Virus record (IMG/VR): IMGVR_UViG_3300020477_001611
Coordinates: 1-64,000 of that record
Source: a virus
DNA: 64,000 nt
Strand: one strand, 5' to 3'
The position numbers and the translations under genes are program-made. Below the pieces are notes generated by a model. The model ran no database searches. It saw only the letters and a list, made by a program, of their open reading frames with translations, and was not told the DNA's origin. Below are positions 1 through 56,900 of this stretch, in pieces. How positions within the stretch are numbered: position 1 is the stretch's first letter; every line of letters begins with the position of its first letter.

Positions 1-1323
1 AGCGTGGATTCCAGAACTAGTTCCCAGAGTTAAGCTTGTTGTGCCGGCTGGTTTAACAGTAGTACACCGAGCCGCTGGCTTAATATCTAAAATCTTAGCA
101 ACTCTTTCATTTTCTTCTTTAACAACTTTAGCAGCTTGCGTCATATCAAGATTTAATACTTTACCAGACGCAATTCCCGTCATAGAAACACCGATGAGCG
201 AATCTTTTTCAGTTGTTCTGCGCCACACATCTCTAAGATAATGAAAATCAGTATATCCGGCTTGAAGAGTTCCAATGAACGCTGCAGCCTTTGCTCGTTT
301 TTCTAGTTCTTCCTGAGATTCCACGTTGCTTACGTTAATTTCTGTGAGATTACAGAACTGATAAGGGCGTAATGCGATCTCGCAACACGGATTCGTGCCC
401 CAATCTTTATCGTTTGTAAAATAAAACCCGGGTTCTCCAGCACCTGAAGCCTTTACGCGCTCCCAGAGAGACTCAAACACCTCTTTCGTGATTCTATGTC
501 GTAATAATACGACAGAATTGTTTGCACGTCCGCGTTGTGGGTTTTTCTCCCACCAATTGCCAGTTTTGGCAGCCAACATCTCACCATCATCTGCAGAGAA
601 AAGGCTGATGAGAGCAGCACGGCGAATGCCGCCAGCGAGAACAGCATCGGCAATATGACAAACAATGTCATGTACCTCGATAGCTTGCAGCTTATCTCCA
701 TCATTTTTTTCATCTAAAATACCTCTAACCTTGAGCAGGCACTCTTTTAGTGGCTGTGGGCCCGGTGCTTTTCCACCCGAAGTAATTAGTCTCGCGCCCT
801 TTGGGCGGATGTCACTAAAGTCAAATCTTATGGTGGAGCCACCAAAAAAATAGCTTCTCACTAATGCTTTTACAGCATCTGCCCACCCTTCAATGCTATC
901 GCCGATCAAAAACCTACGAGATCGCTTAGGATTTGGCCTTCGGATTTCCGGTAACTTCTCAACATGGTGTTGCTGAACACTGTACCCAACACCAGTTCCA
1001 CCAAGCAATAGAAACATAATTTCACTAAAAACACGCCAATCATCAATAGGTGCAAACGCACAATTATAAATACGATTTGGGGCCACTTCAATTGGCTTGC
1101 CCCCGAACTGCATAGAGCGCATAGAGGGCAAAACCTTTTTATTGTGAACTAGCTTATAGGCCTCTGTGATTTCTTCTTTTAATTCTGGATAAGCTTTCCA
1201 ATGCATCCGCTTATTGCGATTGACCAGTTCTCTCCACGCCTCCCTGCGCTTTTTCTTAGGTAGATAGCGTGCGTACTTCATATATACGGTAATATCAGAT
1301 AAAATTTTAGTTTCTCGTTCCAT
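1..1323 (-). CDS. nrdJ: Class II (B12-dependent) ribonucleoside-triphosphate reductase, 3' part missing
   Basis: This enzyme reduces ribonucleotides to deoxyribonucleotides for phage DNA synthesis, using adenosylcobalamin to make the thiyl radical. The reading frame is open from the ATG to the window edge (441 codons), so the C-terminal part lies outside. Visible motifs match the monomeric Lactobacillus-type enzyme: YNCAF with Cys88, NPCCEIALRP at 311-320 and FCNL with Cys324. The 11-residue spacing of Cys313 and Cys324 equals that of the radical cysteine and its redox partner (C408/C419) in that family. PAGTTS lies at 425-430. The start is preceded by a G-rich site (AGGGGGGC) and overlaps the helicase gene by 17 bases, so the two are probably translated together. 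It differs from the class I NrdA/NrdB of T4. Confidence 0.93.
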   Translation of the reverse strand, partial: MERETKILSDITVYMKYARYLPKKKRREAWRELVNRNKRMHWKAYPELKEEITEAYKLVHNKKVLPSMRSMQFGGKPIEVAPNRIYNCAFAPIDDWRVFSEIMFLLLGGTGVGYSVQQHHVEKLPEIRRPNPKRSRRFLIGDSIEGWADAVKALVRSYFFGGSTIRFDFSDIRPKGARLITSGGKAPGPQPLKECLLKVRGILDEKNDGDKLQAIEVHDIVCHIADAVLAGGIRRAALISLFSADDGEMLAAKTGNWWEKNPQRGRANNSVVLLRHRITKEVFESLWERVKASGAGEPGFYFTNDKDWGTNPCCEIALRPYQFCNLTEINVSNVESQEELEKRAKAAAFIGTLQAGYTDFHYLRDVWRRTTEKDSLIGVSMTGIASGKVLNLDMTQAAKVVKEENERVAKILDIKPAARCTTVKPAGTTSLTLGTSSGIHA

Positions 1324-2683
1324 TTTTGCCCCCCTGCATTAATTCTTTATATTTTTCTTTTAGTAACTGTTCTTGTGTTTTTGCCGGCGTTTGAGTAGTG
1401 ACATTAACATCTTGCGACACAATATTGATTTTTACATTTGAAGTGTCCATATAAACGGGATACGCAAAGCCATCTGGGCCGAATCGATTTTTTGCCACAA
1501 AAAACCTCCCTCCATTGCTACTCTTATCTGTCAATGTTCGTGATAAAGTAAATATCAAGTCGGCGACAAAACACTTCGAAAAAGCTTCAGAAATACTTTC
1601 AATAGTGACCAATTCTGCATTATATCCAGACCGATTAGTCTGTGAAACAGTCCACAGCGGACATTCAAATATCTGTGCTATGCCGCGCAAATCTTCATAG
1701 ATTGTTTCCAAATCGTGGCGCTTCTCTCCATAACTTTTAATTGGTCGCACCAAATCTGCGTAATCTATTAAAATTAAATCTGGTTTAATTTCCGCGTTCT
1801 TTAACTTTTCTAAATGATTTTGAATTGTTTTAGTCGTAATCGAACGGGTTGCGTATTCCTTAACAAGCAAGCGACCGGAGACCCCCACAATTTTTTCTAA
1901 AATATGCTCTTTAAAGACTGTAACGTCGCCCAAAGGCACTCCAGTTAAGCAACTATCATACCGCCTAGCAACAGCAGTGTCGCTCAATTCAAGCGTGTAA
2001 TGTATAACGGTTTTGCCTTGTTTGAGGGCTGCTGCACCCAAATGCACCAAAATATGACTCTTCCCCGACCCGGTCCCTCCAATGGCGACACCCAACTCGC
2101 CAGAACCCAAGCCACCTTGCATAATTTCGTCCATCTTTGTCCAGCCGGTGCTAACAGGATCTCTTGCCTTAAGCTCAAAGCGCTTCTCAAAGTCTTTCAC
2201 ATAATCATACCCAAAATCGTTACTCTGTCCCAACTTTAAAGCTTCATTAATCAAATGAGAAATTTCATCAAAAGATGATTTTTCCAACAATGCAGCCGAT
2301 TTAATAATTGCGTCCTTCAGGCGCTGTTTTTTGCAAAAATCCAACGCACGATCTTTAATATACTGCTCTCCAGACACCTCTTGGTCTGTGTGTACCCTAA
2401 CTAAAAACTTTCTTACCTCTTCTTTTGCCAACTTATCTTCATCGCTTATCTCATTATTAACCAAAGACGCCATAAGTGAAAGCGTAGGGTGGACCGAATA
2501 CTTTTCCTTGTAGTCATAAATAAGCTTAACAAAGGCTTGAAGTGCCTTTGTTTCAAAATAATTTATATCTAAAACCTCGCCGACCTGATCGGCATAAGTT
2601 CTATCAAAAAGAATAAGCTTTGCTAAATTCTCCTGAAAAGAGTTTCCAAATTTTGAAAAATCCACCTTTTCGCTAGGCCTCAT
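1307..2683 (-). CDS. dnaB: Replicative DNA helicase, DnaB/T4 gp41 type
   Basis: A hexameric 5'-3' helicase that unwinds DNA at the phage fork and works with the primase encoded at 40.2-41.1 kb. The N-terminal helical domain occupies about residues 1-150. The RecA-type ATPase domain follows, with Walker A GGTGSGKS at 202-209, YTLELS with the catalytic Glu near 232, Walker B LILIDYADL at about 302-310 and the sensor segment TVSQTNRSG near 344-352. At 458 residues it is close to DnaB and T4 gp41 in size. It overlaps the upstream 5'-nuclease gene by 11 bases and the downstream reductase gene by 17 bases, indicating one co-transcribed unit. No intein or frameshift is seen. Confidence 0.93.
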   Translation of the reverse strand: MRPSEKVDFSKFGNSFQENLAKLILFDRTYADQVGEVLDINYFETKALQAFVKLIYDYKEKYSVHPTLSLMASLVNNEISDEDKLAKEEVRKFLVRVHTDQEVSGEQYIKDRALDFCKKQRLKDAIIKSAALLEKSSFDEISHLINEALKLGQSNDFGYDYVKDFEKRFELKARDPVSTGWTKMDEIMQGGLGSGELGVAIGGTGSGKSHILVHLGAAALKQGKTVIHYTLELSDTAVARRYDSCLTGVPLGDVTVFKEHILEKIVGVSGRLLVKEYATRSITTKTIQNHLEKLKNAEIKPDLILIDYADLVRPIKSYGEKRHDLETIYEDLRGIAQIFECPLWTVSQTNRSGYNAELVTIESISEAFSKCFVADLIFTLSRTLTDKSSNGGRFFVAKNRFGPDGFAYPVYMDTSNVKINIVSQDVNVTTQTPAKTQEQLLKEKYKELMQGGKNGTRN

Positions 2684-3641
2684 TATTCACCCTCTTGATT
2701 TTCCTCATGTGTGCAAACATATCTTCAAAAGATATTTCCGCGAAGCCATCTTGAATCATCATCTTCAACATCTCTGTTTTATTAAGTTCCTCGGGATAGT
2801 TTTTAACTGCCTCTTTCAAGATCGCAGCATTTTTTGGTGACAAACTATTACAATAAAGTTGCATTATTTGATAATTCTCAGCTAGTATTTTTTCCTTCTC
2901 CACCACTGCATTATACACCTTTATGTTGATGTTCTCAAGCATTTTCTCACTGTGGATCACTAAATCTTCTATCGAATACGACCTTTCTTCCTTTAAAAAC
3001 GGGAACCTTTTAGCTGCAGACTTTAAGCCGACGCCGCCAATTCCTTCGATATTGTCTGATTTATCTCCCGCCATGGCACGAGCAAGGGTGAAGTTGATAG
3101 GGTGTATATCAAATTTCTCCACAATATGATTCTTGTTTAAAATTTCTTTTTGAACCGGCCGATACAATAAGGTGGTGTCGTCCAACAATTGAAAGAAGTC
3201 TTTGTCTGACGAGACAATAACCTTTTGGGTGTCTCGATAGAGGCCACACAAAGCCGCAATTAAGTCGTCAGCTTCCGTATGATCCATCATCAATTGAGAT
3301 ATGGGAAGCTGATTAAAATATTCCATTAATCTTGATTGTTGCCATATCTTATTTTGAATTTCCTCCTGCTCGCTTAAAACGGTAACATCGCGGTTTAACC
3401 GAAGCGGCTTTTTGCGACCAGCCTTATAGCCGCTTTTTTGCGCCCTTCTCTTAGAAGAGCCTTCTCTGCCGTCCCAACAAATGAAAACCTTGGTAGGCTT
3501 TACCTCTCTGCATAATTTTTGTAAAATCTTTAAGCTCCCCTTAATGCCACCAATTGGTTGCCCATTGGTAGAAAGAGAGGGGTCCACTATGTATGCTCGA
3601 TAATACATATTGAGCATATCTACGATCATAATTCTGTCCAT
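2673..3641 (-). CDS. 5'-3' exonuclease / flap nuclease (FEN, T4 RNase H-like)
   Basis: This metal-dependent nuclease probably removes RNA primers and 5' flaps during lagging-strand synthesis, supplying the activity missing from the separate polymerase. The fold is shown by Asp8, FICWDG around Asp57, EADD at 123-126, SSDKD at 144-148, GDKSDN at 192-197 and the helix-hairpin segment GIGGVG just after it. These are the usual metal ligands of the PolA 5'-nuclease/FEN family. Its 322 residues match T4 RNase H in size. The ATG directly follows the T7 tract of a terminator hairpin, and the only ribosome binding site, AGAGG, lies in the hairpin's 3' arm. The gene has its own sigma-70-type promoter. 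Confidence 0.92.
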   Translation of the reverse strand: MDRIMIVDMLNMYYRAYIVDPSLSTNGQPIGGIKGSLKILQKLCREVKPTKVFICWDGREGSSKRRAQKSGYKAGRKKPLRLNRDVTVLSEQEEIQNKIWQQSRLMEYFNQLPISQLMMDHTEADDLIAALCGLYRDTQKVIVSSDKDFFQLLDDTTLLYRPVQKEILNKNHIVEKFDIHPINFTLARAMAGDKSDNIEGIGGVGLKSAAKRFPFLKEERSYSIEDLVIHSEKMLENINIKVYNAVVEKEKILAENYQIMQLYCNSLSPKNAAILKEAVKNYPEELNKTEMLKMMIQDGFAEISFEDMFAHMRKIKRVNNEA

Positions 3642-3700: not shown

Positions 3701-3832
3701 CTATCTACCTTGTCCTCTATAGGGTTTTTTATAGGTTCGTGATTTTTTATTATGATTTCTTTTAGTAAATTTACCATTTCCCTGCCTCGTCTTCTTTCTG
3801 CTGCCCTTTTTCTTATTTCCCTTCGCTGCCAT
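3701..3832 (-). CDS. 43-residue very basic protein of unknown function
   Basis: A short frame whose ATG overlaps the uvsX stop codon (TAATG), so it is probably translated by coupling to uvsX. Its 43 residues are dominated by Lys, Arg, Gly and Asn, starting MAAKGNKKKGSRKKTRQG and ending KKPYRGQGR, with one Phe, two Tyr and no acidic residue. Such a composition suggests nucleic-acid or ribosome binding, but no family is recognised. It lies between the recombinase and the terminator that ends this transcript. I infer a real gene from the coupled start, the clean stop and the filling of an otherwise empty gap; codon statistics could not be computed. Confidence 0.7.
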   Translation of the reverse strand: MAAKGNKKKGSRKKTRQGNGKFTKRNHNKKSRTYKKPYRGQGR

Positions 3833-4944
3833 TAGTTTTTCTCCTCAATATCTCCATAAAAGTCTTCAGCATTTCCAATACGCTTATCAAATTTCATTAC
3901 CACCTCTTTCTCTAAAAGGTCAATGACGCGATTATAAAACTTTTCTTCTTCTAGCTTTTTAACCCAAGTTTTAGATTGAAACTTCTCCGTTGTACCATCT
4001 TCATAATGTAATGTAAACCACGCGCCTGCATTTTTTAAGTGTTCTGAAGACTTGATGGCCTCAAGCCAACTTTCCTTATCCATAATTTTAACCTCTTGGC
4101 CGCCCCAAACAATCTTAAAACTGCACTCTCGGCCCTGAGTTCCAAAGCGGCTCTTTTCAATTTTTGCTTTCACCTCAGTTCCAATTCGAAACCCTTTATC
4201 ATCATAGATAAAACTAGCCTTCCCTTTCCGCGCTGTGAGCCACACACGCAGAGAATATGAGTAGGCTAGGGCCTTACCCCCCGGCGTGAAATACGGCGTC
4301 ACCATGGCCTCTGCTGGGCGTCTGGTGATGTTTGTCTTCAACTGGTTGAGAATCAACAATGTTGATTTAGTGTTGGCAATCGGCTGAATTAGCTTGGACA
4401 AGCCCTTAGAAAGGATACGAGGCTTTACCGCCATCGTGGATAAGGGATTGAAATCTGATTCAATGTCGCTAATAGACGGTGTTAGGGCCATAGAGTCCCA
4501 AATAAAAAGCATTTGACTGTCATTATTGGTCACCAAACTCTCTATTGTTTCTAACACAAATTCTACAGAACTAGCCTGAACATATAATAGGCTCTCTATA
4601 TCACAGCCAGCATTGGCCAAAAATTCCGGATCAATAGCCGATTCGGAATCAAAATAAATAACATCAATTCCCAACTTTTGAGCGTTGCCGGCAATTTGTG
4701 CCGCCATATAAGACTTACCAGTAGCCTCTAGGCCGGCGATTTCACTCACCTTTCCTACCGGAATGCCACCCCACTTTCCACGACAGATGATTCCATCAAG
4801 CCATTTGCAGCCGGTTGGAATGTACTGCTCCACTTGAGTGGGGTTATCATCCTTTAAAGAAAAAGCTACATTATAGCCTGCTTTCTTATTAATTAATTTT
4901 TTCATGTCGTCAATTTTTAATCGACCGACTTTAGTTTTTGCCAT
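3832..4944 (-). CDS. uvsX: UvsX/RecA-type recombinase
   Basis: This strand-exchange ATPase coats single-stranded DNA and drives recombination-dependent replication and repair. The ATPase core shows Walker A GLEATGKS at 71-78, DSES near 99-102, Walker B MLFIWDS at 145-151 and the LNQLKTN segment near 199-205, followed by the TPGGKALAY region typical of DNA-binding loop 2. At 370 residues it is close to T4 UvsX. It follows the gp32-like gene, as expected for partners in the same reaction, with a hairpin between them. The start is supported by TGGAGAAAAA just upstream. The acidic C-terminal tail (GDIEEKN) is short. Confidence 0.92.
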   Translation of the reverse strand: MAKTKVGRLKIDDMKKLINKKAGYNVAFSLKDDNPTQVEQYIPTGCKWLDGIICRGKWGGIPVGKVSEIAGLEATGKSYMAAQIAGNAQKLGIDVIYFDSESAIDPEFLANAGCDIESLLYVQASSVEFVLETIESLVTNNDSQMLFIWDSMALTPSISDIESDFNPLSTMAVKPRILSKGLSKLIQPIANTKSTLLILNQLKTNITRRPAEAMVTPYFTPGGKALAYSYSLRVWLTARKGKASFIYDDKGFRIGTEVKAKIEKSRFGTQGRECSFKIVWGGQEVKIMDKESWLEAIKSSEHLKNAGAWFTLHYEDGTTEKFQSKTWVKKLEEEKFYNRVIDLLEKEVVMKFDKRIGNAEDFYGDIEEKN

Positions 4945-4988: not shown

Positions 4989-5699
4989 TTAGCTAAGCAA
5001 GTCTTTAAATGCTGCGTCAACGCTGCTGGGAGCGGCAGACTCTTTGTCGTCCCCTCCAGTATTCATGTAAGCATCAAGCATCGTCTGCACTTCCTCTGTG
5101 GTGCGCCGCTGAAAGAGCTTATCATATTCAATTGTGGTGGCCACGTATTCCGCAGTGAGATCTTTATCCTTGGCCAGCGGTGATGTTCGGCGGCTCGGAA
5201 AAAGATCCGTAGACGGGAACATTGCCCCCGGCGCCTTCCCATACTTAAGCGTAAGGTCTGTGCCGTTATCGGGATCAGTAATATCTCCATACTCTGGATT
5301 CAACACCAAATTTAGAAGCTTCTGATAAACAGTTTTGCTGTATCCCCAAAGACGAACGCCCTTTTCTTCTTCGCCGCGGACGACGACTGGTGAAAAGAAG
5401 CGCTGCTTTGCCATCAGCTTCTTAGCCAATTCACGACTTTCCTCAGTACCTTCATCAAAAAGCTTCCTGACAAAAGTATCCAAGGGACAATCATCTCCAA
5501 AATTTCGCTTTGGGCTCAAGAAGGCCTGATTGTCTCCCAAGTTGTAATGAAACCAGAACTCCTTAAAAGGGTCGCCATCTGGGTCTGGTACAATGCGAAT
5601 TGTTTGCTCCCCATCTTGCGGCTTCCAAAAAAGCTCCTTATTGCCGCGCCCTTCCAAGGACGCCATTTTACTCTTCATTTTTTCCATATTCAATGCCAT
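4989..5699 (-). CDS. 32: Single-stranded DNA-binding protein, T4 gp32-like
   Basis: This protein coats single-stranded DNA at the fork and loads recombination proteins. The central segment (FWKPQDGEQTIRIVP, then FWFHYNLG and FLSPKRNFGDDCPLD) is characteristic of the gp32 OB-fold core, and the acidic C-terminus ending in FKDLLS fits the usual partner-binding tail. The T4 zinc ligands are not all visible, so the protein may lack the zinc site. I place the start at the ATG at 5699 (MALNMEK) because TGGAGGAAAAA precedes it. The frame is open up to 5738, but the extra 13 codons lack a comparable site and touch the preceding gene's stop. It is the first gene before uvsX. Confidence 0.85.
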   Translation of the reverse strand: MALNMEKMKSKMASLEGRGNKELFWKPQDGEQTIRIVPDPDGDPFKEFWFHYNLGDNQAFLSPKRNFGDDCPLDTFVRKLFDEGTEESRELAKKLMAKQRFFSPVVVRGEEEKGVRLWGYSKTVYQKLLNLVLNPEYGDITDPDNGTDLTLKYGKAPGAMFPSTDLFPSRRTSPLAKDKDLTAEYVATTIEYDKLFQRRTTEEVQTMLDAYMNTGGDDKESAAPSSVDAAFKDLLS

Positions 5700-5737: not shown

Positions 5738-6556
5738 TTATTGTTGTATTGCGTTAGTGTGGTAGACGATATAAACTCGATCTACGTCGTGCCCCGAATC
5801 AAAAATTGAATACGAGATAGACATATACTCATGTTCGACTGCCTTTTCTAACTTACTACCTATCAAAGATAACATATTTTTGCCCTCTTGTAAAGTGCTT
5901 TTATTTAGCGTAAAATAAAAGTGTTTTTGACGAACGTTTTTAATTTTAAAAAATTTATTTTCCTTTTCTTCGGCAAATTCATAAATTCCAAACGAAGTGA
6001 TCCTACAAACATCTAATATTCCCTCGCCGTTAGACATGAGTGCCTCGGCATTACTATAATAATCCATCAAATTAAACACATCAACGATTGTTTGATTTAT
6101 CTTAGAATAATATTCTGCAATCGATAAGTTTTTCACAACTTGCGCCATATCCGCATTTGAAAAAAGATATATGCGATCGATTAAGGTAGAACGGGCAAAT
6201 TCTTGCATCACCCCATATACAACGCGTTCTCGTTGTCTGGCCATCGTGTTCAAAAAGGATAAATCGGGGCGCACATACAAAAATTTTATTTTTTTATCCC
6301 GAAATTGTTCCAGCGTAGCTAATAATCCACCACTAATAACACCACCACCACAACAAACAAAAATTACCTCGTCTCCAACACACTTATGTAGTTCAGTAAA
6401 ATCAGGCACTCTCTCTTCGGCCTCTTCGACTGTGCTGCACTTAGGATATATAAAATCCGCGCCAGCATAATCAATCGTATAAACATTGTAATTGTCGTAT
6501 TGTTGAAAGCACCTAGCCACCTTGGAACCCCCCGTGCCGTACCCAATTATATCCAT
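5738..6556 (-). CDS. Diverged FtsZ/tubulin-fold protein
   Basis: The 272 residues follow the FtsZ plan. The N-terminus MDIIGYGTGGSKVARCF matches the first strand and nucleotide loop T1. Residues 64-81 (VIFVCCGGGVISGGLLAT) align with the strand plus tubulin signature loop, where FtsZ has GGGTGTG. YVRPDL, then IYLFSNADM around Asn134, follow in order. The C-terminal part (HFYFTLNK, helix, MSISYSIFD, VDRVYIVYHTN) matches the FtsZ activation domain. The signature loop is altered, and the catalytic NxDxxD loop appears lost: the likely counterparts are Tyr166 and Asn169. It may bind but not hydrolyse nucleotide. It overlaps the polymerase gene by 10 bases and lies directly before gp32, so it is expressed with replication genes. 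The assignment is by eye. Confidence 0.65.
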   Translation of the reverse strand: MDIIGYGTGGSKVARCFQQYDNYNVYTIDYAGADFIYPKCSTVEEAEERVPDFTELHKCVGDEVIFVCCGGGVISGGLLATLEQFRDKKIKFLYVRPDLSFLNTMARQRERVVYGVMQEFARSTLIDRIYLFSNADMAQVVKNLSIAEYYSKINQTIVDVFNLMDYYSNAEALMSNGEGILDVCRITSFGIYEFAEEKENKFFKIKNVRQKHFYFTLNKSTLQEGKNMLSLIGSKLEKAVEHEYMSISYSIFDSGHDVDRVYIVYHTNAIQQ

Positions 6557-7725
6557 CGCGTTTTCATTTCTCCTAGATTCTTTCCAGCCTTAACATTAGT
6601 CTTAAAGCGACCAAATCTTGTATTTTCAAATTCGTTCTTAAGTAGTGGCACTGAATTTAGATCTTCTTGTGCCACGTCCAACACCACGCTATCATGAATA
6701 ACAAAACTAATAAAGGATTTTCTCTTTTGTAAAATATTGCGCAGTTTATATACCTGTTCCAGAAACATATCAGATGCAGTGCTTTGAACTGTATAATTCA
6801 CCGCATGGAATTCATCGGCTTCTATTAGTCGATCAAAGGGGGTTGTCACCATTTTTCCATCCCAATATTTTTCCTTAATAAGGAGCCGATCATATGTTCT
6901 ATTCGCCAAATAATCTTTGGAATCTGGATTGTACAGCCATGCAAAAATACGCTCTTTAGCTTCGTCGCGAGTTGGTATTCCCCGAAAGACATTTTTTGCA
7001 TTCCAATCGTGAATGTCTTCCTTGGGCTGTTCCAATCCTAATAACCCCAAAAGTACTCTTAGTTCACATGCATTAAAGTCCAATTCTAGAAAAAAATCAT
7101 TTGTCGGTTGAACCACATTACGAAATTCGCGGTTCAGCGTTAAAATGGGAAAAGAGTCCGGGGTTGTGCTTAGTCGGCCAGTTTTAGTTCCGAACATATT
7201 ATAATATATGCGGCCTCGTCCTCCTTTGTATTTTTGTATAATCTTTTTTGCCCTCTCGTTGTCTGTCTTGTCATAAAGTGCGCGCACATCTAACTTTATC
7301 TCCCGCTTTTCTATTTCTCTTGTCAGTTTATGAATTTTTAACATGTGTTCATAGTTTTTGGGGCGCGCTCTATAAGAGTGGACATACGCCAGAGCTTCGT
7401 TTTTGGTGGTACAATACTCTTCTACAAAATCAAATGGCACCAGATCATAGAAACAATGTTGTCCTAAGTCTATTTTTGCGGCATGAAGACTTTTTAGATG
7501 AGCTTTCAGGCGGCTTTCCTGATTTGAAAATTTCTCTTTATTTTTTGGGTCACAGCACTCTAACAGACTGGCGCCGCTACAATAAAGATATAAATATTCC
7601 GCCTCCAGAGGAAGATTGGGGCAATATTTCCATGTTGCCGTTAACTGTTCCGGAGGATTTTTATAAAACTTATCAGCAAACAACCCCAAACACTCAATTT
7701 TAGAGTCTAAAATAGAAAAATACAC
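6547..7725 (-). CDS. polA: Family A DNA polymerase, polymerase domain only
   Basis: This is the likely replicative DNA polymerase. Motif A is LELDFNACELR at 213-223, motif B RDEAKERIFAWLY at 253-265, NYTVQSTASDM at 310-320 and motif C VIHDSVVLD around 342-350. TKTGRLSTT at 180-188 is the conserved thumb/palm junction. The metal-binding Asp216 and Asp345 are kept, but motif C reads HDS where the family usually has HDE. At 392 residues it is much shorter than PolA. About 130 N-terminal residues precede the thumb, with no recognisable 3'-5' exonuclease motifs, so proofreading must be absent or encoded elsewhere. Rhodothermus phage RM378 is a known T4-like phage with a split family A polymerase. 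The start is GTG with AGAGG upstream. Confidence 0.88.
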   Translation of the reverse strand: MYFSILDSKIECLGLFADKFYKNPPEQLTATWKYCPNLPLEAEYLYLYCSGASLLECCDPKNKEKFSNQESRLKAHLKSLHAAKIDLGQHCFYDLVPFDFVEEYCTTKNEALAYVHSYRARPKNYEHMLKIHKLTREIEKREIKLDVRALYDKTDNERAKKIIQKYKGGRGRIYYNMFGTKTGRLSTTPDSFPILTLNREFRNVVQPTNDFFLELDFNACELRVLLGLLGLEQPKEDIHDWNAKNVFRGIPTRDEAKERIFAWLYNPDSKDYLANRTYDRLLIKEKYWDGKMVTTPFDRLIEADEFHAVNYTVQSTASDMFLEQVYKLRNILQKRKSFISFVIHDSVVLDVAQEDLNSVPLLKNEFENTRFGRFKTNVKAGKNLGEMKTRWI

Positions 7726-7739
7726 ACAAACCTCTTTGT

Positions 7740-9278
7740 TTAAGGAGTGAACAAAGGATTTCCCTTGCCAAATACAAATATATAACTTTTTGGCGAAGAA
7801 GTCAAGTGTTTTTTGCCACGCGAGGAGGGAAGGCCCAAAGACCTCTCTAAGAAATAAAACGCTTCACGATTAAGAAGTTCCACTCTTTTTGTGGCCGGGT
7901 TTACTTTAAAAGAAGAACCAGCGCTGCTCTGAACCGCCGCATAATTGGGGACTTGCAGCAAAGAATAAAATTTTTCCTTCAAGTAAGAGCGCTGAGATAC
8001 TGGCATTCTTACTCCAGTCTCCATAATCCTAAAATCAACATATTGGTCGGTCAGCATCTTCTTGGGGAATAGCGTTGTTTGATCTGGAGGCATCAACCAA
8101 TTAAAATAATAATCGATATAAACACCAACAGAAGGTCGTAAATTTTGCATAGACTTGAATTCTTTCTGAAACAATTGTTTTAAATTTGTATCAGCCTCAT
8201 AAGAAGAGTAGGCTGGGTGTTTTGAAATAAACTTCTCATACATCCTCACAAGTGTCTGTGCAAAGAGGGCCAAATTTTTAACACCATAAACATCTTCATA
8301 ATATTGTTTATATGTTTCTACTGTAAGTCCCACTCCCGTCAACGAAAGGGCGCCCTTGAGGGCCGGCCTCATATATTTTTCGATCATAATATCCGACGAG
8401 AGGTCGGCAATCAACCTCCATGGATTGTTTGGATCAATTCTAAAGCCGTGCATTTTAGCCACATAGTTCAAAACTGGGAAACGAACATCGCTGATGACTT
8501 TAGATCTAAAGTTGTCTGATCCGATGTCTCCGTGAATTATATCTACAACAAGGCCGCTGGCGTATATAGAGTTGTGAGAGCTTTCATAGTAGGCCGGCTC
8601 AGTAAAAAAGAGGCCATTATTACGGATATAGGCAAAAAATAAATTATAAAAATCATTATAATTTTTAATTTTGCTGTTATATCTATTCGGCCTCAATACT
8701 TTGTCATAAAAGTCGTCATAAAGCGAATTATTGTCAACTAAATATTCAAAATACGATGGCACCGGTTCATAAGCGCGTGTTGCCTTAATCTGGTTTAATA
8801 TGCTACGAGGGTCACTTCTTCTTTTTTCATTGTACATCACAAGCAAATCATTGAAGGCTGCAGCGGCGAAGTCAACCAATTTCAGATCTGCAGAAACATT
8901 ACCGAGGGGAGCCCCAGCTTTTAAAGTAGTGAGAGAGCCATAATCATCAACCTTTCCGTAGTTTGGCTTCTCATACCAAGTGTCTAATTGATTTTTTAAA
9001 TTAACGCCCTTGGGGTTGTAGAGCCCAATGGGAAGATTTAACTCGTTGACATAAGTCTTATATGTGTTCCTATTTTTAAATAAAGCTTTAGTAGACGCAC
9101 TCTCATTGGCACTTGAAACATTGTTGGGGTCCACCCCAGAATCTTTAATAAAGGCTGCAGCCTCCTCAATAAACTCACTATAAACGGCTGCTGGCGCATC
9201 CATGTCTTCTGGCAACTCTTTTGCGCCCTGTAGGCCGCGAATATTAATTGTGACTGTTTTTTTAGTTTCAACCGTCAT
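7740..9278 (-). CDS. Unrecognised 512-residue protein, probably tail or baseplate
   Basis: I do not recognise this family. It begins MTVETKKTVTINIRGLQ, then becomes a mixed sequence rich in Tyr, Asn and Phe, typical of a soluble structural protein. No signal peptide, membrane segment or catalytic motif is visible. Its start overlaps the stop of the 865-residue gene by 4 bases (ATGA type coupling), and it is the last gene of the tail block before the replication genes. This suggests a role with the 865-residue protein in the tail tip or baseplate. The C-terminus (KSYIFVFGKGNPLFTP) is hydrophobic and ends only 15 bases before the polymerase start. Confidence 0.75.
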   Translation of the reverse strand: MTVETKKTVTINIRGLQGAKELPEDMDAPAAVYSEFIEEAAAFIKDSGVDPNNVSSANESASTKALFKNRNTYKTYVNELNLPIGLYNPKGVNLKNQLDTWYEKPNYGKVDDYGSLTTLKAGAPLGNVSADLKLVDFAAAAFNDLLVMYNEKRRSDPRSILNQIKATRAYEPVPSYFEYLVDNNSLYDDFYDKVLRPNRYNSKIKNYNDFYNLFFAYIRNNGLFFTEPAYYESSHNSIYASGLVVDIIHGDIGSDNFRSKVISDVRFPVLNYVAKMHGFRIDPNNPWRLIADLSSDIMIEKYMRPALKGALSLTGVGLTVETYKQYYEDVYGVKNLALFAQTLVRMYEKFISKHPAYSSYEADTNLKQLFQKEFKSMQNLRPSVGVYIDYYFNWLMPPDQTTLFPKKMLTDQYVDFRIMETGVRMPVSQRSYLKEKFYSLLQVPNYAAVQSSAGSSFKVNPATKRVELLNREAFYFLERSLGLPSSRGKKHLTSSPKSYIFVFGKGNPLFTP

Positions 9279-11872
9279 GCTTTATTGATTTTCACTCCGT
9301 ATAAATTGATATTGGTTTTTTCGGCACTAAGAATGTTAAAAAGATGCTTAACTAAAGTGACATCAGCCCATGGATTAAAAGTGATGTTTTGTAAATATCT
9401 TTTATTCTGCTCCTTCTTGGCCTGCTTGTTATTTTCGATTTCAGCCATACTGCAAACACGGTCGGCGGCAATATTGGTTTCATAGGAATTCGGCGTAATA
9501 ACATCTGTGACGCTCTTGATAAGATAAAAGCCGGACAAGCCCACTTCTTTTTCTTTTTCGATACCAAGGTTTGCTGCCGGAATATTAAAAATACCAGCCA
9601 CCCCATAGACATTATTTCCAAAAGTGGTAAGATTCGCTGCATAAAAATAAGGTGCGAATAGCCAATTAGTGTTCGTAGAGTTTAATAAAAGCAGCAGTGT
9701 CTGATAGTGGGGATTTTCAGTAGGCGAAAAGGAAACTTTCTTCAAAAGGCCAGCCGCTGCGCCGATTAAAACCCGATAATACCCCAGATCTAAATTGCGA
9801 GTTTTATTAAACACATCCTGTGCAAACAACGTACTTGTTTGTGGTGTCATAAGATCACTATTATTGTAAAAATTATTAGGGCCCGCGTGATAATGAATTA
9901 ATCTATTGTGGGCCTCATTGCTTATCATAAGCGCAAAAGAGTTTTTAAGAGGGTCCTCGGCGCCTTGAATAATTTCTTGGGACTGATTCCACGAAAGGGC
10001 GCCAGTATAACCATAAACCTGATATTTGATAGGAACTTGATAGGTGGGGTCAATACCATCATATAAAACGGCCGAAACTAAATCGCGCATTAACAAAGAG
10101 ATAAGAGTGCCAGCACCTATTGTTTTATTTTTTCTCAGAACGGCTTTAAGGTATAGGCGGAACACTTTCAAATCCACGAAAACATCACCTATATTACACC
10201 AATATTTTTGGCCATCAGGAAGGGCAACAAGAATATTGCCCAACATCACATAGGGAAGAATAGATTTAACTACGTCCCCCTTGTCGCTCACACCACCATC
10301 TTTTATATCCTCATCCGCAATGCGATAAATGGCCATTACGATGTCGCGAATGGTAGTGAACTTAAAAGTCTTTTTACCCCCCTTCTTAAAGGCTCCAAAA
10401 GAAGTGCGTAAAATCTTACCAATTTGTTTATCTAAAAACTGAGAGCCTTCGGTGCTTATTAGCTTATCTCCAACGGGGGGATCCTTGTCGATTTTCTCTT
10501 GAAGTTGCTTAACCACCTCTTTAACGTCATAAGTTGCAGTTCGCGATAATTCAATGCCCCCCTCAATACCAGCATATTTTACTTTAAAGTCCACTTTGGC
10601 AGTTTGTAGTTCCTTCTCCTTGAACGTGTAATTTACAGAATATGTCCCATCATAAATTCCTAAGTTATCTTCCAAAACAGCTTCAAAAATAGCAGGAAAA
10701 TATTGGGTATACTGTGCCTGAATATTAGCTCGATCTTGTCGTATAAGCCCTTGTATTTCATTTATATTCTCTTTTTGTTGCTTCTTGTCCATGCCCGGGG
10801 CGTCAAACGGGGGCCTAGTGCATTTTCTGCCTTGTAATTGACTTTCAATACATTCTTTATTTCTTTTCACACTTTCATACAGGCCAAGAAGTGTTGCAGC
10901 CTTTTTATCCACACCAGCCAATTCTTTTAATTTTTTCATAGTGAGGCGATTAACCTTAGTATTTCCAAAGGAAGTTGTTAAGCGGGTGCCCTTATGAAAT
11001 GCATCTAGGCCGATGCCGACATATTCGACAGTTAATTTAATAGATGCATCGTCAGCAAATTCAAAGTTGTGGCCGGCATAGTCCATTACGAACACCTTCT
11101 TTTCTTCGGCGTTAATAATTTCCTTCATCCCCCGAGCAATAATATCATCTGACACGGAATCCGCAACATTCCAGCCATATTCCAGCACAAGCGGGGCATT
11201 TGACCTAAAGCTGTTGGGCCGAATAAGCTCTGTATAACGAAGATCGGGATCGTGAGTAGAAAGGCCGTGCCATTTCGGAGCGGAAGCTACCTTTTCAGCG
11301 AACACTTGATAAGACTGAAAAAAATAAGTAATTTTTATGACGCCGGGATCAAACATATTCGCCGTCGCGTATTCCCTGCTGACTGTAACATTTTGAATTC
11401 CGGCGCCGTCGCCTTTGCCGAACTCAGGAAGGCGGCCGTATCCCGAAAGTGCTGTTTTCTTATCAAAAGAGATAATCTTTCTTTTTTTATAATTTTCAAA
11501 TTTACCATTCTTTTTTCTTGGTAATATGTATAATTGAATGTGAGGGCTTAGTGCTGCTTGCTGCTCAGGCTTCATTTTAAGCATGAAATCTACATACTTT
11601 TGTTTCTGTTCCTGACTTTTTATATAATTTTCTTTTATCTCAGCGTTTGATTTGCCGGGAATAATGTTGCGCTCCAAAGAGGTTTTAAACTTAGGGTGAA
11701 GGCCCAACACCTTTCCATTCGCATTTTTAAATTTTTGTTCATAAAACTCACTAAAAAATTTTCTTGCGACCTCATCTTTTGCCAATTGAGGGGTGATGAT
11801 GCGTGATAAAAAATACTGTAAGGTGGCCTCATCGTTTGCAGTGCGCTCTAAGTTTGGTAAATAAAGATCCAT
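9275..11872 (-). CDS. Large tail-tip or baseplate hub candidate (865 residues)
   Basis: The protein is real by length, context and its coupled end, but no named family is certain. Its middle part carries VSREYATANMFDPG, KITYFFQSYQVF and LVLEYGWN (about residues 165-240), a beta-rich pattern resembling tail hub proteins of large myoviruses. A Lys-rich segment around residues 340-375 looks like a flexible insertion (SVKRNKECIESQLQGRKC). Residues 620-800 contain further beta-rich sequence. It follows the gp53-like LysM gene and precedes an unknown gene whose start overlaps its stop. Location and size would fit a T4 gp27 or gp5 equivalent, but no lysozyme motif is seen. Confidence 0.7.
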   Translation of the reverse strand: MDLYLPNLERTANDEATLQYFLSRIITPQLAKDEVARKFFSEFYEQKFKNANGKVLGLHPKFKTSLERNIIPGKSNAEIKENYIKSQEQKQKYVDFMLKMKPEQQAALSPHIQLYILPRKKNGKFENYKKRKIISFDKKTALSGYGRLPEFGKGDGAGIQNVTVSREYATANMFDPGVIKITYFFQSYQVFAEKVASAPKWHGLSTHDPDLRYTELIRPNSFRSNAPLVLEYGWNVADSVSDDIIARGMKEIINAEEKKVFVMDYAGHNFEFADDASIKLTVEYVGIGLDAFHKGTRLTTSFGNTKVNRLTMKKLKELAGVDKKAATLLGLYESVKRNKECIESQLQGRKCTRPPFDAPGMDKKQQKENINEIQGLIRQDRANIQAQYTQYFPAIFEAVLEDNLGIYDGTYSVNYTFKEKELQTAKVDFKVKYAGIEGGIELSRTATYDVKEVVKQLQEKIDKDPPVGDKLISTEGSQFLDKQIGKILRTSFGAFKKGGKKTFKFTTIRDIVMAIYRIADEDIKDGGVSDKGDVVKSILPYVMLGNILVALPDGQKYWCNIGDVFVDLKVFRLYLKAVLRKNKTIGAGTLISLLMRDLVSAVLYDGIDPTYQVPIKYQVYGYTGALSWNQSQEIIQGAEDPLKNSFALMISNEAHNRLIHYHAGPNNFYNNSDLMTPQTSTLFAQDVFNKTRNLDLGYYRVLIGAAAGLLKKVSFSPTENPHYQTLLLLLNSTNTNWLFAPYFYAANLTTFGNNVYGVAGIFNIPAANLGIEKEKEVGLSGFYLIKSVTDVITPNSYETNIAADRVCSMAEIENNKQAKKEQNKRYLQNITFNPWADVTLVKHLFNILSAEKTNINLYGVKINKA

Positions 11873-50959: not shown

Positions 50960-53900
50960 TTAGCCATAATATGCTTTTTCCCACGATACATGATCTTTAC
51001 ATGGCATCCAATATTGACCCATAGCATGTACCTGCCCTTGACAGCCTTCGTTGGTGTAGCTCTCAGATGTTGCTATTGCAGCGTTTCGATCTTCATAAAG
51101 CTCTTCTGGCGGGATGCTGGCTAGTGGATCCTCTTCTTCCTCTGCCGGCTCCTCTTCTTCGTAAACACAACTGCCATCATCAACTGTTGCCTTTTCATTA
51201 TAGTTGTTGGCGTTAGAATCCGTGCACCCATAGATGATTTCATCCTCAATGCCAGCCTCAAATGGGTCTTCCTCTTCGAAAGCGCCGAGGTCGGACAGGT
51301 CACCAGTAAAAAGCTCATCAGATCTTGAAGGAGGCATCTCATCTGCGCTATCCTCTAACACGCACTTGCAATTTTTACACACATAGCCGCCATCAGTATC
51401 GCACGTTCCAAGGGCTCCGTCACTGCTGCACTCCGCGTCGGGATTAGGCTCACAAGAAACCGTCACGTCGCTAGATAAGGCGCTCATGGTGGTCTTGCAG
51501 GTGTGACACTCTGGGCAGTCATCATCGTTCTTGCAAACCGGCTCTTCTTCTTCCCGTGGCGGCACATATGGTAGCCCGCACTTAATAACCAATTCTTCAA
51601 AAGATTGTCCCTGTTCTGGCGACAACTCTATCCCCAGTGATAAAAGCTCTTGTAAACGAGCCAACTCTTGCAGTTCGGGTGATGAACAAATTGCTTGTGT
51701 TGGCGCAGCGGTGTTTGTTGGCGCTGAGATGGTAAGTGGTTCGCCAAGGGCTGCTCTTTTCGCAATGACCTCTTCAGGTCTAATATAGCCACCACCACGA
51801 ATATCTTTTATTCTATTGGGTGCATCGTTTCTGACCTCAAAACCGACTTCCATCTTACCTAGCTCGATCAACGAGAAATAATCATAGGGCCAATTATAGG
51901 AAAAGCGCTGGGCGATTGGATAACGATAAGCGGGCACCCCAGTCAATGCTGCTTGTGTAACATAATAATCGTATTCGGCTCGCTTTTTAATTTTGAAAAT
52001 ACGCCATCTTATATCTTTAGGTATCTTTTTGTCCCTAAATCCATTATATTGAAAAATTGTTGGTGATAACAATTCGCCATCCACCAATGGATGTTCTATA
52101 ATAACAGTCTCAGTTTCGGGGGTAACAGCTTGGGAGGGCATCACCCCCTGCCACCATTTTGATAGATCTGCCTGTGTTAGTGTAGAAGTAAACTCGCTAA
52201 TATACATTGAAAATGGTGGATTAACATTGCCATATTCCTCCTTTGTAGTTGGCACCCTTTTGGCCTGATCTCGTTTCCAGACGAAATCATAAATAGGGGG
52301 CACCACATACTTATCCATTTTCTTAATCATATCTGCAACCGAATTAGTCGTTAGGCGGTCCTGCCTTACATCGGCATAGCTTTTTTCAAAAATGTTAAAT
52401 GGAATTTCAAAGTATGTTTCTTCACCAGTTTCACAATCTACATAAAAAGGTATGGCACATATTGCTTCTTCCACAATTTGTTCAGCCTTAAATCGCCCAA
52501 TGGGCTCAGGTCGACTTGCAAAACCACAGGCTTCCACCAATGACCCTGTTAGTTCGCGGTTAATTGCATCTGGATATACGGAGTTTCCGCTCCACGAGGC
52601 CTTGCTCAGTTTCATGTTGAGGCGCGTGGCAGTGCCCGAAAGTTCTGTAGCTGCAACATCTGAAAACTGATGCCACATTCCCCTAGTACCGCACACGGTG
52701 CCCGCCGTGCCGATCGAGTGGGGATTTGGCTCGGCCGTTGGTGCGACTGGGTTGGCTGTGCTAGCATCACCATCTTTAAAGAAGTTTAATACAGGCGCCT
52801 CCCACTTTGTTCGTATTGTCCACCTCTTATCTGCATCAAGCTCAAACATGTCAATACTTGCTGACAAAGCCATGAAGCTGGCCGACGAGGGTACCATGGA
52901 ATTGCTGTTAATGGCAGTGGCACACGCATTATTTCCAGCGCCATTTAGCTCAGTCCAACTGTTTGAATTTCGTATGGTTGAATTGGCAATGATATCCGAA
53001 AATGAAAAAGAAGATTGGCCGACCTTTCCGCTACTTGGCAGTAAATTGGTGGGATCGAACTCTAATGTCGCTCTTGTGTAGGCGGGGGCGGAATAATGGA
53101 ACGAGGAGCCGCCGAAGACATCGCCAATGCAGGCGGCGGGGGCGCCGCAGCCATAACAGTTGTTGGCGGCAACAAAATCAAAATACGCCGCTTGTCCCTC
53201 ATATGCCATAAACATCACCCCGGGTGGGGCATGATGAATATAGGGATATGGTCCAAAAGCTGCGGGGTTTGAATATTGTACAAAAGAGACTGGCTTTGTT
53301 ATTATAACGTCCATTGCAAACTTTTTGACGCCGGCGCTTGAACTCAATGGCCCTTCAAAGGTCCATGATGATTCTGGCGCAGATTTAAAAGTTGTTAGGC
53401 CATCTAGGAAAAAATTGGGCACTTCTGCAAAAAAATTATGAGCAGCGTACTGGTAAAGTCCATCTGTTTTATTGACGGCACCGGTGGTGTCTTGCACTAT
53501 CGGCATCGGACTATGGGCCGAATAATAGCTGCCGCTACTGGGGCATATTTGAAAAATGTTGCCCACATATTCATGAGGGGCCAATATTGCATCAAAGGGT
53601 GCGCGTGATTCAAATTCTTGATCAATGCTTGCAGATGCGCGGCCGGCGATAGTCGATTTATAAGGGAAATCACAAGCAAGGCCGGCCTTGATGGAGTTAT
53701 AGCCAATCCCGGGGGCCCAAAATGGCATTAAAGAAGTCTCATAAGTGGGAGAGTTTCCAAGCGGAATGCTGGACGGCGTATTTCCGGGCCCTTGGTCGTA
53801 GTCTGAATTGGCATAAGACTGAGAGAAAATCTGCGCCAACTGAACTGTTCTTTGTTGTGGGTAGAAACCATCCTTGGGCAAAATTTGCTTTACGACATCA

Positions 53901-56900
53901 AACGCCAGTCTTATGGCTGTCGGCTCTCCATAATAGTCTTTCAATTCCTGTAAGTAAGTTAATTTACTAGTAGTCGCATATCTTTCTATAGAATCTCTCC
54001 TAGATTCTGTATCTCCCGCAGGAGCACCGACGCCGCCATGGCCAGTAAAGCCGCTACCGGTCAGGGCGTATTCATATATATTGTTAACATAATTGCCGCC
54101 ATGAGAAATATGCACTTCCCTAACAAAATTAGAAATTGTAAATTCGGGCATGAGGGAATAATCTTGCCCAATTAACTTTGCATCTTTTGAAAAATCATCG
54201 TAAGAGGTAAAAAAGGCACCAGTGCCAGCCTGAGCCTGTACCACATTCTTAGCGCGGCTTGTATCTAGTGTGAATGCATATCGAGAGTTTATTTCGCCGG
54301 CGACGATGGCGCCTTGGCCAGTAGAGCCTGTATTTCTCATTATGACGCCCGATTCTTCATGATCTGCTGCGGCGCCGGTCGTAGAAACATCCATAGGCCA
54401 GCCGCTGGCCGTTATATTGGTGCCAGCGATATCAGCAAGAACATTATCTTCGCGTATTGCGAGAAGATCGCTCTTCCAAAAAGAAACGTATTGTTCTCTT
54501 TCGCGTATTAAATTGCGGAAAACATTTTCATCCTTTGGAAATAGAACCTCAGAGTATAAAATGTTCTTCCACTTGCCGCTTAATTTATAAAAATCTGAAT
54601 TTTGTAAATCTCTTGTAGGAGCGTTTAAATCAAAATTCTTATTTTCTATTGCATTCTTTTCCTTGCTGTAGTCCCGAGCGAAATAATGATATTCGTTGCC
54701 AAAAGCATATTCTATGGTGCCCGTCACATCATCGATAGCCTGAATTACCTTTTTATGTTTAATTGTAACGGGCGATTGCACTAAATCAGTGCGACTGTCA
54801 ATTAGCTTATTTCGATTATCATCAAGCACTTTTCTCACATTTTGATAAAGACTGTATTTCCTTAAATCATTTGCCGCTTTTGTTTGACGCACCCGAAGTT
54901 GTTTCCAAGTCGGCCAACCATATGGACCATTATTGTTTAACAAAAAGGTATTGGTGGAAATAGCCTGATATTGCTGTGCGTGAGTTTCTCCAAGCGTATA
55001 AATATTAAAGTACGATGAGGTGGTGGAGGCAGTTGTAAATATATTACTAGCTGTATCAAAAGTGCCTAAAACTATAGTATTATCTCCAACAAAAGAAACT
55101 CCTTGCGTATTGCCGCCATAAGTAGCAGCCTTTGCGCCCGGGACGGGGTACCATGAGAAGTGGCCGCCGCTGATGAACTGGATGCTAGCTGAATATTCAT
55201 AGCCATAAATTGGTGAATAATCACTTGCAGTAGCATCATTCTCAAACCCGTTTCCGGTTCCATATTCAGGGCCCGAACTTGTCAAAAGGCCCGGAGCGGT
55301 TGTAAGAAGTGCCTCGTTTGGATATCCCCTCTTTTGAGCAATCCAAGAGTCTGCTATCCAACGATACTGCACATCCGACTTGGGAATGCCGTGGCCCACA
55401 TAGGCGTTGTCGTATACTGTCTTGGGAGATTCCAACGATGAGGATATCTGATAGCCCACGTTTCGCTGATTCTTTTGATAAGAGCCGCTTGGGGCCAACA
55501 AGACCGAATCGTAGCCGCCACTAAGAGCGTGCCTTGTTAGCAGTGTCTGCAGCGCATTTCTCACTACCAAGTTTCTGTAAGGAAGGGCATTGTAGACAGA
55601 ATACTCTGCACTTTCCACATCAAGGGCGTTTTCTGCAGAAGTTTCGGGGCCGCCGGGTGCGGAGAACCTATTAACAATAATGCTATCAGTGCTGCCCGTT
55701 AAATCGCGGCGCAAGGCTGCTCGATCATCGAAAGTTATATTGGTTACAGTTTCTATTGCGTCGTTAGTAACGCCGCTGCCGGTGGTACCCAGAGAGAGAA
55801 TATAATATCTATTATTTTCGCGGCGCCCAGATGTTTGTACGATCTCGTAATTGTAATTATAGTTATTATAATTTATTCCAATTGAATTCGAAACTTTAAT
55901 GTTTGCTATGTTTACTGGGCTTTTGGCGCCTGCCGCTCTTAAAAGAGTTCCCACTGGGCGGTCTTTATCATATTCACCGTCAACTATTCTTGGATTCCTA
56001 AGCTCAAAGCCATCTGTTGCATGGTCGGCAAAGTTTAATTGATAGCCCTCTTTGCGAACTCTGGCGTCTCCAGACGAAGAATAGTTTAAAAGATTTCCAT
56101 GTCTATATTGATAGCCGCCGACCTGTTCTTCGGTGTAAGTTCCTTGCATTGGCACTTCTTTATCAAAATGATAAGAGTCAACATGGGCGTTAACAAGGTC
56201 GGCATTATTCCCCAAAGTCGTTGCCAATATTTGTTGATAAGCCGAGGGTGTCTCGCCCGATGCACTCAAAATGGTGAATGGCAAATAAGAGTAAGGTGGA
56301 AGTTGTGTTGAATCTTCGTTTGTTGAAACTGAAATTGGGAAACGGCGCCGCCCATTAGAAGTTTCATCGCGTGAACCAGAATAAGTATAATACGGCGTAT
56401 TATTAATGTTTTTAACCGCATTCGACAGGCCGGCACGAGATAGGATGGAAATTCCATCTGTTGCCGCCCTTTCAGAAAAAGTCCCTAAATAATAATTTGG
56501 TCGCGATTCATTGTTTAAATTCACGCCTGCGTGGAGAGATCGGTATGCAGCCATATCAAAATTGCTATAAGGCGTTGCGCTACGAGAGTAAACCATGGCT
56601 GCATTATTTTGTAAAGCATAGCGGCTGTGGTTAGCTGGTGCACTTACATTTAAAATACCCGTTGAATCGCGGCGGGCGCTGAAGCGCCACCAGATACGAC
56701 CCTCAGATTGATTTGTGACCACTGGGTCAGTAGGTGCCCTGATCTTACTAACCGTGGGGTAATCCTCTAATCGTGGCTCCCGTTGGTTGGGGGTGAGCCC
56801 CTTAGAACGCTGCATGTCTCTGGGGAATGGAGCATTTCCTGCGAATGAATTCCTAATTGGAATTTGAAGATTGGGATCCGCTCCGCTACCATCCTTTGGT

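What the first reader, a model, noticed from the sequence alone, without database searches (positions are those of the whole stretch)
5738..6556. FtsZ/tubulin-fold protein with altered GTPase loops inside the replication block
Seen: T1-like GYGTGGS, a GGGVISGG loop where FtsZ has GGGTGTG, RPDL and SNAD segments in FtsZ order, and an FtsZ-like C-terminal beta-alpha-beta-beta domain. The catalytic NxDxxD loop seems replaced (Tyr166, Asn169). Known: phage tubulins such as PhuZ organise the phiKZ-type nucleus, but they keep the GTPase signature. Inference: a diverged, perhaps non-hydrolysing FtsZ-fold protein, co-expressed with polymerase and gp32. It could block host FtsZ by mimicry, act as a cap, or organise replication sites. 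I know of no description of such a gene in this setting.
Basis: partly seen in the sequence, partly recalled or inferred. Interest (0 to 1): 0.75.

Follow-up and report, generated by a model that had tools for sequence, protein, structure and literature searches.

The report
Core tubulin-fold protein of marine T4-like phages
A large group of uncultured, mostly marine T4-like phages carries, always between its DNA polymerase gene and its single-strand-binding-protein gene, a gene for a tubulin/FtsZ-shaped protein that keeps the nucleotide pocket but has lost the loop that normally lets these proteins burn GTP, so a cytoskeleton-type protein seems to be built into their core replication machinery.

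Summary
The 272-aa protein (5738-6556, minus strand) is predicted with high confidence to have the two-domain FtsZ/tubulin fold: pLDDT 91, best 50 PDB matches all FtsZ, E down to 1e-12. A second member (pLDDT 95) gives the same result, with TubZ among its matches. A family profile also finds TubZ/RepX by sequence alone (E 3.5e-5). The nucleotide-pocket positions are unusually conserved.

New here: this is not a stray gene. I collected 147 relatives from viral metagenomes. All 76 SSB loci with upstream DNA carry it, and all 91 loci holding the three genes have the order PolA, this gene, SSB. It often overlaps the polymerase stop codon, is single copy, and co-inherits with its neighbours. The nearest named phages lack it, and three queries found nothing in 50,697 phage records. 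FtsZ mimicry against the host is therefore less likely than a core replication-linked role. I judge it a new family of the tubulin/FtsZ superfamily, probably a nucleotide-binding scaffold. Binding, polymerisation and function are untested.

The parts
5738..6556 (-). Tubulin/FtsZ-fold protein (272 aa), here called Z
   Evidence: ORF; AF2 model and fold search; family of 147 ORFs
6524..6544 (-). T1 loop GYGTGGS (residues 5-11), family consensus GLGxAGC
   Evidence: G5 and G7 95%, G10 93% of 89 non-redundant members
6326..6349 (-). T4 loop GGGVISGG (residues 70-77), family consensus GxGxxSG
   Evidence: G72 84%; strict [SAG]GG[TS]G[TSA]G in 0 of 89
6149..6160 (-). T6 loop SNAD (residues 133-136) with N134
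   Evidence: N134 85%; aligned to FtsZ IPND and TubZ IDNAK
6050..6121 (-). Core helix H7 (residues 146-169) with N154; most members have HMxN near its end
   Evidence: AF2 secondary structure; N154 88%, H at 162 92%, N at 165 88%
6002..6049 (-). Shortened T7-equivalent loop (residues 170-185); no NxDxxD, no H8
   Evidence: 0 of 89 members with NxDxx[DE]; 170-183 less conserved than the protein mean (p 0.007); acid at 182 in 68 of 89, R185 in 80 of 89
5744..6001 (-). C-terminal beta-alpha-beta-beta domain (S7 to S10, H10), H9 replaced by a hairpin
   Evidence: AF2 models
6547..7725 (-). Family A DNA polymerase (392 aa), directly upstream; its end overlaps the Z start by 10 nt
   Evidence: PF00476 E 2.8e-14, phrog_17 E 2.4e-16; sequence
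6570..6574 (-). AGGAG, possible ribosome-binding site of Z, inside the polymerase gene
   Evidence: read from the sequence
4989..5699 (-). gp32-type single-strand DNA-binding protein (probable start ATG at 5699, behind GGAGG)
   Evidence: PF08804 E 9e-13, phrog_1192 E 1e-26; homologues start MALDxKKM
3832..4944 (-). UvsX/RecA recombinase
   Evidence: phrog_97 E 5e-47
2673..3641 (-). 5'-3' exonuclease
   Evidence: PF02739 E 5e-28
1307..2683 (-). DnaB-type replicative helicase (gp41)
   Evidence: phrog_19 E 1.5e-70

Best explanation
Z is a new family of the tubulin/FtsZ superfamily, nearest to TubZ by sequence and to FtsZ/TubZ by fold, and a core gene of one uncultured T4-like lineage. Shown by computation: the two-domain fold, a conserved nucleotide-pocket sequence, loss of the canonical T7 motif and of H8/H9, fixed position between PolA and SSB, single copy, and joint inheritance with its neighbours. 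Inferred: it binds a guanine nucleotide, does not hydrolyse it efficiently by the canonical mechanism, and acts as a nucleotide-dependent oligomeric scaffold made together with polymerase and SSB, which holds or positions the phage replication machinery or its DNA. Identity is near certain (about 0.95); the scaffold mechanism is a bet (about 0.4).
For: Fold. Sequence link to TubZ: (E 3.5e-5, colinear over T4, T6, H7 and the T7 region). Weak FtsZ profile match: (P 6e-4 and 0.0085 with two settings). Pocket positions more conserved than random positions, p 5e-5. A second conserved polar set at the ends of H5 and H7 and at the T7 place (Q118, R122, S123, H162, N165, E/D182, R185) would, by tubulin topology, lie on the face opposite the nucleotide, as expected of a head-to-tail assembling protein (inference, no coordinates at hand). 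Context: 76 of 76 SSB loci with upstream DNA, 91 of 91 loci in the order PolA-Z-SSB with about two thirds overlapping or abutting the polymerase stop, and pairwise identities correlated with those of the polymerase (r 0.77) and SSB (r 0.80), p 5e-4. Single copy in 8 of 8 records of the lineage.
Against: No biochemical data. The strict T4 signature is met by no member and T4 is poorly kept in some subclades (SCGKISAA, GDEIVCAA). T7/H8, a main part of the longitudinal interface of tubulins, is gone, which speaks against canonical filaments. No physical contact with polymerase or SSB was tested. The best-80 SSB scan favours close relatives, so 76 of 76 describes this lineage and not all T4-like phages. 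The sets of positions tested for conservation were chosen after seeing the alignment, the second set fully so.
Confidence: 0.5

Rival explanations
1. Replisome accessory subunit: Z no longer assembles into filaments but works as a monomer or dimer that binds PolA, SSB or helicase (loader, clamp-like tether), with the nucleotide as a switch.
For: Universal place between PolA and SSB and translational overlap; no gp45 clamp and no gp59 helicase loader found in the records of the lineage that were searched; polymerase is only 392 aa; loss of T7/H8.
Against: The sister phages also have this minimal PolA-SSB-UvsX-exo-helicase block without Z, so this replisome type does not require a tubulin fold; no binding shown.
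Confidence: 0.3
2. DNA segregation or positioning system like TubZ/PhuZ: a hydrolysing polymer using an unorthodox T7.
For: Closest sequence relative is TubZ/RepX; acid at 182 in 76% and R or K at 185 in 94% of members.
Against: No NxDxx[DE] in any member, H8 missing, no long C-terminal helix and tail as in TubZ and PhuZ; no canonical tubulin partner in the searched records.
Confidence: 0.12
3. Host-takeover protein that blocks host division by imitating or capping FtsZ.
For: FtsZ fold. Other phages block FtsZ with small early proteins, and the plant protein ARC3 uses an FtsZ-like domain to restrain FtsZ (background knowledge, not tested here).
Against: Invariant core gene in the replication operon rather than a variable early gene; 8-16% identity to FtsZ and no FtsZ-type C-terminal peptide; contact elements T7/H8 lost.
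Confidence: 0.1
4. A dinucleotide (NAD-type) Rossmann protein, which the first reader named as the refuting outcome.
For: N-terminal GxGxxG with an acidic residue at the end of strand 2 (G5, G7, G10, D29); TrkA_N match in 9 of 50 members, best E 8.8e-6.
Against: Whole-chain fold searches list only FtsZ and TubZ in the best 50; conserved T4, T6 and H7 positions and the C-terminal domain fit tubulins. NAD instead of GTP as ligand of a tubulin fold is not excluded.
Confidence: 0.05

Closest known systems
TubZ / RepX (type III partition tubulins of plasmids and phages; PDB 4ei7, 2xka)
   Same: Only significant sequence match among solved structures that fits the whole fold (E 3.5e-5); T4, T6, H7 and T7 regions colinear; fold TM up to 0.74 by query
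   Different: Z is about 110 aa shorter than 4ei7, lacks the T7 motif, H8, H9 and the long C-terminal helix and tail, and sits between PolA and SSB
Bacterial and archaeal FtsZ
   Same: Same fold (best E 1.3e-13), T1 glycines, T6 and H7 asparagines in place
   Different: No NxDxxD, no strict GGGTGTG, no C-terminal conserved peptide, about 12% identity
PhuZ / PhiKZ TubZ
   Same: Phage-encoded tubulin fold
   Different: PhuZ keeps a catalytic T7 aspartate (PMC3678025) and belongs to phiKZ-type jumbo phages; Z belongs to T4-like phages with PolA, gp32 and UvsX
A0A6J5RW92, FtsZ-annotated protein of an uncultured Caudovirales phage
   Same: Best viral fold match (E 6.5e-12, TM 0.76 by query)
   Different: 452 aa; its sequence and genome context could not be read here

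Membership tests
Tubulin/FtsZ superfamily (fold) | Rossmann-type GTPase domain, core helix H7, C-terminal beta-alpha-beta-beta domain | tested here: met
   (predicted structures)
Tubulin/FtsZ superfamily (sequence) | Significant profile similarity | tested here: met
   TubZ E 3.5e-5; PF00091 stays below its cut-off, best E 0.007
Tubulin/FtsZ superfamily (GTPase) | T4 signature [SAG]GGTG[SA]G | tested here: not met
   0 of 89; relaxed GxGxxSG common
Tubulin/FtsZ superfamily (GTPase) | T7 NxDxx[DE] catalytic loop | tested here: not met
   0 of 89; acid at 182 in 68 of 89
Tubulin/FtsZ superfamily (GTPase) | GTP binding, hydrolysis, filament formation | not testable with these tools
   needs purified protein
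FtsZ | C-terminal linker and conserved peptide for FtsA/ZipA | tested here: not met
   chain ends right after S10 in the window; short variable tails elsewhere
FtsZ | Passes the Pfam Tubulin cut-off | tested here: not met
TubZ/PhuZ | Long C-terminal helix and tail for filament contacts | tested here: not met
   no helix after S10 in the window; 7-residue helix in L242
TubZ | Adjacent TubR gene and tubC repeats | not tested
   neighbours are PolA and SSB; no dedicated search for a centromere was made
NAD-binding Rossmann enzymes | Whole-chain fold match to a dehydrogenase | tested here: not met
   none among the best 50 of two searches

The most novel reading that the evidence does not exclude
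A tubulin-superfamily protein has become a structural part of a viral replisome: a GTP-locked or nucleotide-gated oligomer that tethers PolA, SSB and helicase, universal in a widespread lineage of marine T4-like phages.
Probability: 0.3. Interest if true: 0.9.

Novelty: new variant of a known kind. Interest (0 to 1): 0.72.

Why it matters
Phage tubulins are known from jumbo-phage nuclei and from plasmid-like partition, where hydrolysis drives dynamics. A universal tubulin-fold gene in the replication operon of a widespread T4-like lineage, with the pocket kept and the catalytic loop gone, would extend the superfamily to a static or switch-like role in DNA replication and give a first handle on this uncultured lineage.

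Tried and rejected
Single-sequence Pfam, PHROG and PDB searches found nothing usable. A direct scan with the window protein found no relative; going through the neighbouring polymerase did. The idea that Z serves a phage-encoded canonical FtsZ was dropped: no PF00091 match in 12 records of the lineage. The idea that the ~130-aa gene at this place in the sister phages is a remnant of Z was dropped (hhalign P 0.85). FtsZ hits in INPHARED 'phages' look mostly like bacterial chromosome contamination and were used only as FtsZ sequences. The weak DUF6119 and F-actin-cap Pfam hits were taken as chance. The host of the lineage could not be determined.

Full report
What is there. The window is the first 64 kb of a 101-kb virus record of a T4-like myovirus: gp23-type capsid and T4-type terminase, gp32-type SSB, UvsX, 5'-3' exonuclease, DnaB-type helicase. 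It starts inside the last codons of a 392-aa family A DNA polymerase (10-nt overlap at 6547-6556, AGGAG at 6570-6574) and is followed by the SSB, whose real start is probably ATG 5699.

Is it a tubulin fold? By single-sequence search it is an orphan. Relatives were found by walking from the polymerase and then with family members and the SSB as queries; iterated HMM searches gave 147 ORFs, 89 of them non-redundant at 85% after dropping fragments. AlphaFold2, fed only with family members, gave pLDDT 91.3 and pTM 0.89 for the window protein and 94.8 and 0.92 for a second member, L242. Both models find FtsZ first in the PDB (E 1.3e-12 and 1.3e-13), with TubZ reaching the highest TM (0.74) for the second. 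A 50-member profile finds TubZ/RepX by sequence at E 3.5e-5, colinear over T4, T6, H7 and the T7 region. Profile-profile comparison with FtsZ is weak but colinear through the GTPase domain.

What is kept and what is lost. T1 glycines (93-95%), D29 (88%), G72 (84%), N134 (85%) and N154 (88%) are kept; as a set the pocket positions are more conserved than random positions (p 5e-5). The strict T4 signature and NxDxx[DE] occur in 0 of 89. Between H7 and S7 there are only about 16 residues, with no H8, and H9 is replaced by a hairpin. An acidic residue at 182 (76%) and R185 (90%) remain at the T7 place, so a crippled or unorthodox hydrolysis is possible. A further conserved set (Q118, R122, S123, H162, N165, R185; in the window protein itself 162 is N and 165 is D) lies at the far ends of H5 and H7; from tubulin topology I infer that this is the face opposite the nucleotide.

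Distribution and context. In 76 of 76 SSB loci with DNA upstream, Z lies in front of SSB. In 91 of 91 loci with all three genes the order is PolA-Z-SSB on one strand, about two thirds with Z overlapping or abutting the polymerase stop, the rest with one or more genes between. Z is single copy in 8 of 8 records. Pairwise identities of Z track those of PolA (r 0.77) and SSB (r 0.80). The nearest named phages, Flavobacterium phage immuto, Microcystis phage Mel-JY01 and the 484-kb LR756508, share the PolA-SSB-UvsX-exonuclease-helicase block but lack Z and have an unrelated ~130-aa gene between PolA and SSB. Three Z queries find nothing in 50,697 phage records. Note the bias: the SSB scan kept the 80 best matches, so the statement holds for this lineage.

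How it probably works. A gene that is universal in its lineage, coupled to the polymerase gene and inherited with it is likely to be a replication component or organiser, not a variable anti-host factor. With pocket kept and T7/H8 lost, the simplest reading is a nucleotide-binding, poorly hydrolysing scaffold or switch. Whether it assembles, and on what, is open. [quoted passage not shown] The 2010 survey also notes FtsZ-superfamily members that lack key motifs (PMC2875224). A survey of jumbo phages describes tubulin homologues in the nucleus and segregation settings (PMC7824862). I found no description of this family in the papers searched, though that library does not hold everything.

Verdict. 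Observation confirmed; interpretation partly supported and extended. A new family within a known superfamily, in a setting not described before as far as I could find, with function unproven.

Noticed in passing
L077 1346-1801, L078 5885-6274, L248 9374-9763: The sister phages share an orphan ~130-150 aa protein (HRKKESNTLYTINALN) between PolA and SSB where this lineage has Z; possibly an analogous factor.
   Followed up: partly
6547-7725: Very short family A polymerase (392 aa); no gp45 clamp or gp59 loader found in the records of the lineage that were searched.
   Followed up: partly
7740-9278 and 9275-11872: Two large ORFs (512 and 865 aa) upstream of the polymerase without PHROG match.
   Followed up: no
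50960-60382: A single ORF of 3140 aa in the structural block.
   Followed up: no
L167 and L168 (right of the window, 64-101 kb of the record): Long run of genes that look like nucleotide-sugar epimerases/dehydratases, transketolase-like halves and glycosyltransferases, plus adenylosuccinate synthetase, ClpP and PhoH-like genes (by eye).
   Followed up: no
INPHARED records such as CAKLQH020000013.1 and OR846604.1: Several 'phage' records carry ordinary chromosomal-looking ftsZ, probably host contamination.
   Followed up: no
L015, L018, L019, L022, L023 between polymerase and Z: One subclade has extra genes inserted there, including a NUDIX-like and a small conserved protein (by eye).
   Followed up: no
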